A DNA stretch of 44,820 nucleotides, from contig JAJZWB010000010.1 in the NCBI GenBank assembly GCA_021846845.1, forward strand, positions 1 to 44,820, given 5' to 3'. Made by a program: the position numbers and the translations under genes. Origin of the DNA: Actinomycetes bacterium. GTDB lineage: Bacteria > Actinomycetota > Thermoleophilia > Solirubrobacterales > Solirubrobacteraceae. The notes below the pieces were generated by a model that made no database searches, was not told the origin of the DNA, and saw nothing but the letters and a program-made list of their open reading frames with translations. Each line of letters starts with the position of its first letter. Position 1 is the first letter of the stretch. This document shows positions 5,091-8,351 of the stretch, one piece after another.

Positions 5091-6686
5091 TCAGGAGCCG
5101 CCGCGCGAGTGAGCGCGCAGCTCGGCCAGGATCCGCTCAAGCCGCGGCTCGGTTTCGGTGTCGACGTGGGTCATGGCCGCGGCGACCGCGGGATGCACGG
5201 TCGCGATCTGACGGTGCATCTCGTGCGCGACCGCGCGATAGCTCGGATGACCCTCGCGCCCTGAGCGCAGCTCTATCAGCGCCATCGCCTCACGCGCGTT
5301 GAGGTCCAGCACGAAGCGGATGCGGTAGCCGAGGCACAGCGCGTACGGTGCGGCGGCGCGCAGACCGCGGTCGGCCAGCCGCTCGTAGGCCGCGCGTGAG
5401 GTCTCCAGCCCGCGCCGGTAGTCCTCGCCCCCGCCGGCGAGCTTCACCTGCTCGGGCACCTCGGCACCCAGGTCGGGGCTCAGAGCCTGCCACTGCACGG
5501 TCAGCATCCGGTGGCGCTGCAGGTCGCGGAAGGCGCCGTAGTCGGCCACGATCTCGAACCGGTAGCGCAGCGCCTCCAGACCCCGCCCGGGGCGGTGGCG
5601 GCGGTTGTCCCGGCCGCCGAGCAGGTCCCGCAGCAGCGCCGCGCGCTCGTCGGCGCTCAGCGCCGCGAGCGACGCGCGGATCGTCCGCTCGCCGCTCGCC
5701 GCCGACTCGAAGAGCAGCGCTGCCAGGAGGTCGTCCTCGTCTCCGTCGACGCGCGCGAGCCGCACCGAGGGCCCGCCGGCGGCGGCCTCGTCGCGATCGT
5801 GGCCGAGCCCCATCCGCTGCGCCCAGCGCTCGCCCGCGCGAGCGCGCGACTGCAGGTACTCGATCCAGCGCCCCCCGCGGTCGGGCCGCTGCACGCGCGC
5901 GACGAAGCTCGGGATCACCCGCCGGCACTCCGAGAGGAGCATCTCGCCGTAGTCGCGCGCCTCCGGCAGCGGGTGTGCGAGCAGGTGCAGGATTAGCTGC
6001 TCGAAGCTCTGGCCGCTGGCGTAGATACCCATGTGGGAAAGCGACGAGGCGGGCAGCAGCCCGCGCAGCAGGTCAAGGGACTTGGCGCGAACGGCGCGCT
6101 CGTGAGCGGCCGGGGCCTCGCCTTCGGCGAGCGGGAACGCGTCTCGTGCCCACGCGCCGACGCGCGGCAGCAGCGCCGCGTAGAGCGAGAACAGCTCATC
6201 CATCGCGCGCTCGTACTCGGGTCCCAGCTCGGCGTCCCTGTAGTACCGGTGGCCGCCCGGCGGGTCGGGCATCGGCCCGTCGTAGGCGATGTAGCGCGTC
6301 GACTGCTCCAGGTACGCCGCCAGCCGCGGGCGCTGGAGCACCTTGGTGAGCACGTTGGAGACCCACTCGCAGGCGACATGGGCGCCGCCCAGCTGGGCCA
6401 CCGAGTCGTCGCCGTAGCCTAGGAGGACGCGCTCGTAGAACCGCTCGGCGCGGCCGCCTTCGGCGCGGTGGCCCTCGCCGGGAGCCGGCCGGCACAGGTC
6501 GTCCGCGAACTCGTCGAGCAGCAGCCGCCGCAGCGTCCCCGGGTAGCGGGAGTAGCGCGCGAACAGCGCCCCCTTGAGGGTCTCTGGCAGGTCGACTAGC
6601 GCGAAGACGGGACGGTCGAGGTTCGTGCAGTGGGCGCGCAGCAGCGCCCGCTCGGAGTCTGTGAAGCTCTCGACCGGGTAGCGCAC
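5091..6686 (-). CDS. Tandem two-domain ThyX-like (FAD-dependent thymidylate synthase family) protein
   Basis: N-domain RPRLAAYLEQSTRY and C-domain RHRMLTVQWQALSP align with the two halves of the ThyX motif RHRxxSxNExSxRY. Start taken as GTG 6686; the ORF extension to 7109 is antisense to the next gene. Confidence 0.7.
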   Translation of the reverse strand: MRYPVESFTDSERALLRAHCTNLDRPVFALVDLPETLKGALFARYSRYPGTLRRLLLDEFADDLCRPAPGEGHRAEGGRAERFYERVLLGYGDDSVAQLGGAHVACEWVSNVLTKVLQRPRLAAYLEQSTRYIAYDGPMPDPPGGHRYYRDAELGPEYERAMDELFSLYAALLPRVGAWARDAFPLAEGEAPAAHERAVRAKSLDLLRGLLPASSLSHMGIYASGQSFEQLILHLLAHPLPEARDYGEMLLSECRRVIPSFVARVQRPDRGGRWIEYLQSRARAGERWAQRMGLGHDRDEAAAGGPSVRLARVDGDEDDLLAALLFESAASGERTIRASLAALSADERAALLRDLLGGRDNRRHRPGRGLEALRYRFEIVADYGAFRDLQRHRMLTVQWQALSPDLGAEVPEQVKLAGGGEDYRRGLETSRAAYERLADRGLRAAAPYALCLGYRIRFVLDLNAREAMALIELRSGREGHPSYRAVAHEMHRQIATVHPAVAAAMTHVDTETEPRLERILAELRAHSRGGS

Positions 6687-6779: not shown

Positions 6780-8351
6780 ATGGCAGGACCCGCCGCCCAG
6801 CCCGACGTCGAGCACGTGGACGTGATCGTCGTCGGCGCCGGGCTGTCGGGGATCGGCACTGCCTGTCGTCTGCTTGAGCGCTGCCCCTGGGCCAGCTTCA
6901 CGATCCTTGAGGCGCGCGGGAGGATCGGCGGCACCTGGGACCTGTTCCGCTACCCGGGCGTGCGCTCGGACTCCGACATGTACACGCTCGGCTATCCGTT
7001 CGAGCCCTGGCGGGGCGCCGAGCCCCTCGGCCGGGGCGAGGAGATCCTCTCCTACCTGCGGCAGACGGCCGAGCGCCACGGCGTGACGGGCCGGATCCGG
7101 ACCGGGCATCGCGTCGTGCGCGCCTCATGGTCCAGCGATTCCGCGCTCTGGACGGTGGACGTGCGCGGGCCGGCCGGGTCTCTGGCGATGACCTGCAGGT
7201 TCCTGGTCGGCTGCACGGGCTACTACCGCTACGACCACGGGCACGAGCCCGCCCTCCCGGGGGTCGAGAGCTTCTCCGGGACCGTCGTGCATCCCCAGCG
7301 GTGGCCGGCCGACCTGGACTGGGGTGGCCGCCGGGTTGCCGTGATCGGATCCGGCGCGACCGCCGTGACGCTGGTGCCGGCGCTGGCCCGGAGCGCCGAG
7401 CACGTGACGATGGTGCAGCGCTCTCCGACGTGGGTGATGGCCGTGCCCGCGCGCGATCCGCTCGCCGGCCTGCTGCCCAGGTGGTTGCCCGGGCGCTCGG
7501 CTGACCGCCTGCTGCGGGTCAGGAGCATCGCCGTGATGGCGCTCCTGTTCCGGCTGAGCCGCCGCATGCCGCGTCTGGTCTCCCGGCTTCTGCGCCGCGA
7601 CGCGCGCCGCAGGCTGCCGGCAGGCTACCCGGTCGAGCTTCACTTCAACCCCGGCTACCAACCGTGGGACCAGCGCATGTGCTTCGTCCCCGACGGCGAC
7701 CTCTTCGACGCGATCTCCTCGGGCCGAGCGTCGGTCGTGACCGACACGGTGCGCCGCTTCACCGAGCGCGGCCTGCTCCTCGGCGGCGGCCGTGAGGTCG
7801 AGGCCGACGTGGTGGTCACGGCGACGGGGCTCGACCTGCTCGTGATGGGCGGCATCGAGCTGGCGGTGGACGGCGATCCCGTCTTTGCGCCGGAGCGCTT
7901 CGTCTACCGGGGGATGATGCTCTCGGGGGTGCCCAACCTGGCGATGGAGATCGGCTACACGAACGCCTCGTGGACGCTGAAGTCCGACCTGATCGCGCGG
8001 CACGTCTGCCGGCTGCTGAACCACATGCGCGCGCACGGGCACACGCACTGCGTGCCGACGATGTCCGAGGTGGACCCGGCCAGGCGACCGTTGATCGACC
8101 TGACGTCCGGCTACGTGCGCCGTTCGGCGCACGAGCTTCCCAGCCAGGGGGCTCGGCGCCCGTGGCTGACCCGCCAGAGCCCGCTCCTCGACGCGCTGGA
8201 CTTCCGATTCGGCAGGGTGGACGACGGCGTGATCCGCTTTCACCGCGCCGACCGCGCCGACCGCGCCGACCGCGCCGACCGCGCCGACCGCGCCGACCGC
8301 GCCGACCGCGCCGACCGCGCCGACCGCGCCGACCTGCCGGCGCGGCGCTAG
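6780..8351 (+). CDS. Flavin-containing / Baeyer-Villiger-type monooxygenase
   Basis: GAGLSGIG, fingerprint FSGTVVHPQRWP (FxGxxxHxxxWP), second Rossmann VAVIGSGATA. Confidence 0.88.
   Translation: MAGPAAQPDVEHVDVIVVGAGLSGIGTACRLLERCPWASFTILEARGRIGGTWDLFRYPGVRSDSDMYTLGYPFEPWRGAEPLGRGEEILSYLRQTAERHGVTGRIRTGHRVVRASWSSDSALWTVDVRGPAGSLAMTCRFLVGCTGYYRYDHGHEPALPGVESFSGTVVHPQRWPADLDWGGRRVAVIGSGATAVTLVPALARSAEHVTMVQRSPTWVMAVPARDPLAGLLPRWLPGRSADRLLRVRSIAVMALLFRLSRRMPRLVSRLLRRDARRRLPAGYPVELHFNPGYQPWDQRMCFVPDGDLFDAISSGRASVVTDTVRRFTERGLLLGGGREVEADVVVTATGLDLLVMGGIELAVDGDPVFAPERFVYRGMMLSGVPNLAMEIGYTNASWTLKSDLIARHVCRLLNHMRAHGHTHCVPTMSEVDPARRPLIDLTSGYVRRSAHELPSQGARRPWLTRQSPLLDALDFRFGRVDDGVIRFHRADRADRADRADRADRADRADRADRADRADLPARR
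8244..8333 (+). repeat. 10 perfect tandem copies of 9-bp CGCGCCGAC, encoding (Arg-Ala-Asp)10
   Basis: Direct count, 90 bp with no mismatches. Confidence 0.98.

What the first reader, a model, noticed from the sequence alone, without database searches (positions are those of the whole stretch)
5091..6686. Tandem ThyX-like protein with the ThyX signature motif split between its two domains
Canonical ThyX carries one contiguous motif, RHRxxSxNExSxRY. Here the N-terminal repeat has RPRLAAYLEQSTRY (6291-6332): the ExSxRY half is intact and the RHR half is degraded. The C-terminal repeat has RHRMLTVQWQALSP (5475-5516): RHR is intact and the SxRY half is lost. Each domain keeps only the half the other lacks. 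This suggests an intramolecular heterodimer that assembles composite active sites, or a family that has moved to a flavin or nucleotide chemistry other than dUMP methylation. I cannot tell from sequence alone whether this family is already described.
Basis: partly seen in the sequence, partly recalled or inferred. Interest (0 to 1): 0.75.

Follow-up and report, generated by a model that had tools for sequence, protein, structure and literature searches.

The report
Tandem ThyX with a shared active site
This bacterium appears to make the DNA building block thymidylate with an unusual double version of the enzyme ThyX, in which each half carries only part of the catalytic machinery; the same division of labour recurs in every double ThyX examined here, from soil actinobacteria to giant phages, and nobody seems to have tested how it works.

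Summary
The 531-aa minus-strand product has two Thy1 (PF02511) domains. The N half has ExSxRY without RHR; the C half has RHR without SxRY. It is not a quirk of one gene: all 139 relatives examined (bacteria, phages, plasmids) show the same split, none the reverse or a full motif. The split follows the published subunit partition of the M. tuberculosis ThyX site: RHR and Arg199 come from one subunit (here the C half), Ser105, Arg107 and Tyr108 from another (here the N half). Both halves resemble canonical ThyX, and a domain tree is compatible with one old duplication. Of 297 Actinomycetota genomes, 87 carry the tandem protein; none has a canonical ThyX as well, and 84 lack any ThyA. All 31 genomes with strong ThyA have DHFR; none of 85 tandem genomes lacking ThyA has it. 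Best explanation: a genuine flavin-dependent thymidylate synthase working as a pseudo-heterodimer, with half the tetramer's sites lost. The duplicated ThyX was noted in 2009 as uncharacterised; I found no account of the split site. The inter-domain geometry, the number of sites and the activity were not tested.

The parts
5091..6686 (-). CDS of tandem ThyX, 531 aa (GTG start, stop included)
   Evidence: about 85 near-full-length relatives in 297 genomes
5907..6461 (-). N-terminal Thy1 domain
   Evidence: PF02511 match E 1.5e-13; profile match to canonical ThyX, prob 97.5%, E 5e-12
5187..5651 (-). C-terminal Thy1 domain
   Evidence: PF02511 match E 1.1e-16; profile match to canonical ThyX, prob 98.5%, E 3.5e-15
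6291..6314 (-). YLEQSTRY (residues 125-132): retained dUMP-side half of the ThyX motif (Mtb Ser105, Arg107, Tyr108)
   Evidence: Ser, Arg and Tyr 135/135; subunit role from PMC6514825
6324..6332 (-). RPR (residues 119-121): degenerate RHR of the N half
   Evidence: His 0/135 in N halves
6063..6065 (-). Arg208 (T. maritima Arg147 equivalent by alignment)
   Evidence: 135/135; its subunit role is from memory
5508..5516 (-). RHR (residues 391-393): retained FAD-binding half of the motif (Mtb Arg95, His96, Arg97)
   Evidence: 135/135; role from PMC6514825
5475..5486 (-). ALSP (residues 401-404): position of the lost SxRY in the C half
   Evidence: Arg and Tyr 0/135
5292..5294 (-). Arg465 (Mtb Arg190 equivalent, FAD contact)
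   Evidence: 132/135; N half has Gln226
5265..5267 (-). Arg474 (Mtb Arg199 / T. maritima Arg174 equivalent, dUMP contact)
   Evidence: 135/135; N half Leu/Met

Best explanation
The protein is a flavin-dependent thymidylate synthase built from two fused, non-equivalent ThyX domains. In canonical ThyX each active site is assembled from several identical subunits. Here the C-terminal domain plays the FAD-binding subunit (RHR391-393, plus Arg474, a dUMP contact), and the N-terminal domain plays the partner that grips dUMP and closes the lid (Ser129, Arg131, Tyr132, Arg208). Two chains would form a pseudo-tetramer with two working sites instead of four; the two reciprocal sites are dead. It makes dTMP from dUMP with methylene-tetrahydrofolate and reduced FAD, regenerating THF, so no DHFR is needed. 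Shown: two ThyX domains, conserved split, match to the published subunit roles, being the only recognisable thymidylate synthase in its genome. Inferred: catalysis, the two-chain assembly, the number of sites.
For: Two PF02511 domains; both halves align with canonical ThyX; the full-length model is confident (pLDDT 88.8, pTM 0.88) and its best PDB matches are ThyX chains; the N half alone also matches ThyX first. PMC6514825 assigns Arg95-His96-Arg97 and Arg199 to subunit A and Ser105, Arg107, Tyr108 to subunit C; PMC3498832 reports the same kind of division for PBCV-1 ThyX (Gln75 and Arg182 from monomer A; Ser88 and Gln89 from monomer B). The partition is kept in 139 of 139 sequences, including phages of Vibrio, Microcystis, Microcoleus and Tunturiibacter and Paenibacillus plasmids. 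Own genome: no match to ThyA, another ThyX, DHFR or thymidine kinase. Of 87 tandem genomes 84 have no ThyA hit and none a canonical ThyX. DHFR 31/31 with strong ThyA versus 0/85 with tandem only, Fisher p 7e-29.
Against: No biochemical data. NCBIfam's ThyX equivalog cut-off is not reached (45.3 against 87.9 bits). The published subunit-B contacts do not follow one rule: the Arg190 equivalent is in the C half in the actinobacterial family, in the N half in Paenibacillus and Tunturi_5, and by hand alignment in neither half of the Vibrio phages; the Ser71 equivalent is in the N half. Mtb Arg87, a dUMP contact, is replaced by Asn111. The genomes are not phylogenetically independent, so the Fisher p is inflated.
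Confidence: 0.82

Rival explanations
1. A ThyX-like flavoenzyme that methylates another nucleotide or does other flavin chemistry; dTMP is made by an unrecognised enzyme.
For: Precedents in the PDB: PolB is described as a UMP/dUMP methylase (4p5b), and one Corynebacterium glutamicum ThyX is described as not required for thymidylate synthesis (titles).
Against: Tandem genomes almost never carry ThyA or another ThyX, and 59 of 87 show no thymidine kinase hit, so something must make dTMP. All residues listed as binding dUMP in PMC6514825, except Arg87, are present once per chain.
Confidence: 0.08
2. The reciprocal pockets are not dead: four sites form, two canonical-like composite sites and two with altered ligands or a regulatory role.
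For: N-half Arg121 (132/135) and Ser95 (135/135) remain conserved, as do several further invariant positions.
Against: The reciprocal pocket lacks His96, Arg199, Arg107, Tyr108 and the Arg147 equivalent in essentially all members; conserved N-half residues may be structural.
Confidence: 0.07
3. Degenerate or inactive paralogue.
For: Each half alone lacks residues that bind FAD or dUMP in canonical ThyX.
Against: Strict invariance of the complementary residues across 135 aligned sequences and sole-synthase distribution.
Confidence: 0.03

Closest known systems
Canonical homotetrameric ThyX / FDTS (PF02511; T. maritima TM0449, M. tuberculosis ThyX)
   Same: Fold, Thy1 domain, and nearly all FAD- and dUMP-binding residues present somewhere in the chain; replaces ThyA; DHFR-free genomes
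   Different: Two fused domains; the RHRx7S motif is divided between them; each domain keeps only one subunit role
'Duplicated' ThyX of non-Dehalococcoides Chloroflexi (Valas and Bourne 2009, PMC3224940)
   Same: ThyX with a domain duplication as the only thymidylate synthase; called uncharacterised there
   Different: The passage read says nothing of motif division or mechanism; Chloroflexi sequences could not be fetched here, so identity of the family is not tested
Phage proteins in PHROG 36506 (Microcystis phage LMM01 gp020 and relatives)
   Same: Two-domain ThyX of about 460-520 aa with the same split motif
   Different: Distant in sequence; phage-encoded; annotated only as thymidylate synthase or hypothetical
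PolB, UMP/dUMP methylase (4p5a/4p5b)
   Same: ThyX fold
   Different: Single-domain chain of 239 aa; its role does not fit the sole-synthase distribution seen here

Membership tests
Thy1 superfamily (PF02511) | Pfam match over the curated cut-off | tested here: met
   112.9 bits against 24.8, two domains
Canonical ThyX (TIGR02170 equivalog) | Score over the equivalog cut-off | tested here: not met
   45.3 against 87.9 bits
Canonical ThyX | Contiguous RHRx7S motif within one domain that continues into SxRY | tested here: not met
   0 of 139 tandem proteins keep RHR and SxRY together (11 of 135 keep a Ser at the Ser105 position of the C half, without Arg107 or Tyr108). The 12 single-domain controls have the motif but were selected by it.
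Canonical ThyX | Key FAD/dUMP residues present in the polypeptide | tested here: met
   Arg95, His96, Arg97, Arg190, Arg199 equivalents in the C half; Ser71, Ser105, Arg107, Tyr108 equivalents in the N half; exception: Mtb Arg87 is replaced by Asn111
Canonical ThyX | Stands in for ThyA in the genome, without DHFR | tested here: met
   genome co-occurrence
Canonical ThyX | ThyX fold | tested here: met
   AlphaFold plus Foldseek
Canonical ThyX | Homotetramer, FAD bound, dUMP to dTMP activity | not testable with these tools
   needs protein work
PolB-type UMP methylase | Lies in a nucleoside-antibiotic gene cluster | tested here: inconclusive
   No full annotation was made: neighbouring ORFs were read by eye as amine oxidase, flavin monooxygenase and nuo genes; NuoN and NuoM queries match flanks of 23 and 18 of 80 relatives

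The most novel reading that the evidence does not exclude
Tandem ThyX is an old, widespread class (Actinomycetota, Parabacteroides, jumbo and cyanophages, Paenibacillus plasmids) that turned a symmetric homo-oligomeric enzyme into an obligate asymmetric one: each chain carries one composite active site, and the reciprocal pockets are lost or free for another role. It would be the thymidylate synthase of large bacterial clades, apparently never studied biochemically.
Probability: 0.72. Interest if true: 0.65.

Novelty: new variant of a known kind. Interest (0 to 1): 0.58.

Why it matters
ThyX is pursued as an antimicrobial target and its reaction mechanism has been revised repeatedly. A natural variant that keeps only half of the sites, with the residue roles separated by domain, would let each half of the motif be mutated independently, which a homotetramer does not allow. 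It is also a clear case of duplicated domains dividing a shared active site, and it would settle the role of an essential gene in large clades (Solirubrobacterales, many Acidimicrobiia).

Tried and rejected
Single-sequence phmmer against the PDB found nothing; a family profile did. Direct profile comparison of N against C halves is not significant by probability (6%): each half resembles canonical ThyX more than the other half. A second, hidden thymidylate synthase was looked for: ThyA appears in tandem genomes only as G200 (strong, two pieces), G130 (fragment), both with DHFR on the same contig, and a weak hit in G231. Five genomes that looked like split or single-domain versions (G009, G039, G052, G076, G163) have a different single-gene ThyX variant: motif THRxFSRNSxSSRA, read in two of them. 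A Vibrio phage match that covered two annotated genes is one 461-aa tandem gene. Chloroflexota genomes could not be reached. Model coordinates were not exposed, so pocket distances could not be measured. Leduc 2004 and Koehn 2012 are not held.

Full report
Observation. The reverse strand of 5091-6686 encodes 531 aa with RPRLAAYLEQSTRY (residues 119-132) and RHRMLTVQWQALSP (residues 391-404) at the stated coordinates. Pfam finds two Thy1 domains over the cut-off. The NCBIfam ThyX equivalog model matches only part of the second domain and falls short of its cut-off. The window lies in a 3.7-Mb, 95% complete genome; its closest named relatives are Solirubrobacterales.

More than chance. A search of 297 Actinomycetota genomes found the protein in 87 (counted; the 89 matches include one canonical ThyX and one genome with fragments only). 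In an alignment of 135 homologues the N half keeps Ser, Arg and Tyr of SxRY in 135/135 and never the His of RHR; the C half keeps RHR in 135/135 and never the Arg or Tyr of SxRY. Motif-anchored counts that add four more phage members give 139 of 139 (one has Phe in place of the lid Tyr, two have RHN in place of RHR by that alignment). Those counts are anchored on the motifs and so partly circular; one search is not anchored. If retention in N or C were a coin toss for four linked units (RHR, Arg199, SxRY, Arg147), the right partition would arise about one time in eight; the weight of the argument is the strict conservation and the functional completeness, not that number.

Why the split makes sense. 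A 2019 review of solved structures (PMC6514825) describes one active site of M. tuberculosis ThyX: Arg95, His96, Arg97 and Arg199 from subunit A, Ser71 and Arg190 from subunit B, and Arg87, Ser105, Arg107 and the lid Tyr108 from subunit C. PMC3498832 gives the same kind of division for PBCV-1 ThyX. In the tandem protein the A set is in the C half (Arg391, His392, Arg393, Arg474) and the C set, except Arg87, in the N half (Ser129, Arg131, Tyr132). Arg208, equivalent to T. maritima Arg147, follows the C set; I recall that this residue comes from the same subunit as SxRY, but no paper I opened says so. The B set is mixed: Arg190 equivalent in the C half (132/135), Ser71 equivalent in the N half (135/135).

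Structure. The full-length AlphaFold model is confident (pLDDT 88.8, pTM 0.88). Its best PDB matches are single ThyX chains, TM about 0.7 by target length. The N half alone is modelled less well (81.5), with a large drop around residues 121-140, the SxRY loop (64/72 against 82/87). That would fit packing of the C half on this loop, but the two runs also differ in alignment and length, so it is only a hint. Its best PDB matches are again ThyX, at modest TM about 0.5. ThyX chains found in the PDB by sequence are 216-270 aa, so no tandem one was seen.

Genome evidence for function. The genome has no match to ThyA, another ThyX, DHFR or thymidine kinase. Of the 87 tandem genomes, none carries a separate canonical ThyX: matches are the two halves of the tandem protein, except two tandem copies in G040, an extra C-half fragment in G293 and one truncated copy in G246. 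Three have a ThyA hit: G200 and G130, whose contigs also carry DHFR, and a weak one in G231. All 31 genomes with strong ThyA have DHFR; none of the 85 tandem genomes outside G130 and G200 does above cut-off. Relatedness between genomes inflates the p-value, and many genomes without ThyA lack DHFR too, so this supports ThyX-type chemistry rather than the tandem form in particular.

Distribution and origin. Tandem ThyX with the same split occurs in Euzebya and Miltoncostaea plasmids, in a Parabacteroides distasonis record that carries housekeeping genes and looks chromosomal, in Paenibacillus plasmids, in one IMG/VR contig and in phages of Tunturiibacter, Vibrio, Microcystis and Microcoleus. Bacillus plasmids match the Parabacteroides protein over most of its length; their motifs were not read. 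In a tree of 56 domains all N halves group together (99/98) and 20 of 22 C halves group together (98/97); the Paenibacillus C halves are unplaced. This is compatible with one old duplication, given midpoint rooting and long branches.

Literature. Valas and Bourne 2009 (PMC3224940) wrote that Chloroflexi other than Dehalococcoides have only ThyX, and that it contains a domain duplication that 'has not been characterized'. The searches made turned up no paper on the divided motif; the library lacks most subscription journals, so this is not proof of novelty. NCBI already annotates such proteins as FAD-dependent thymidylate synthase.

Verdict. A real, conserved and sensible feature: a tandem ThyX whose active site is shared between two specialised halves. 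New variant of a known kind; mechanism strongly suggested, not shown.

Noticed in passing
L074-L078 (genomes G052, G039, G009, G076, G163): Five Actinomycetota genomes without a tandem ThyX hit have a roughly 300-aa ThyX variant instead; motif THRxFSRNSxSSRA read in L074 and L075, and in L075 it lies between dapA-like and dapB-like ORFs.
   Followed up: partly
many genomes without a listed ThyX (e.g. G015, G020, G030): Several dozen genomes show only a weak (E about 1e-6 to 1e-12) PF00303 match, often in a frame of 220-300 aa, and most have no DHFR match: possibly a divergent, archaeal-like ThyA.
   Followed up: no
window 8245-8335: 9-bp tandem repeat (GCCGACCGC)n at the 3' end of the flavin monooxygenase ORF 6780-8351, encoding (ADR)n, next to nuoN.
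   Followed up: no
L166 (NZ_OY725790.1): Parabacteroides distasonis record labelled 'plasmid 45' carries housekeeping genes (lpxK, thiL, queC) and looks chromosomal; its tandem ThyX lies near a dihydrofolate reductase gene.
   Followed up: partly
G040:C5 and C71; G293:C49 (L081): One genome has two tandem ThyX genes; another has an extra C-half fragment.
   Followed up: no
L164, L165, and Bacillus plasmid hits H28-H31, H33: 200-230 kb Paenibacillus and Bacillus plasmids carry ThyX-like proteins matched over most of a tandem query; the Paenibacillus ones sit among DUF1257, UvrD and AAA genes, possibly phage-plasmids.
   Followed up: partly
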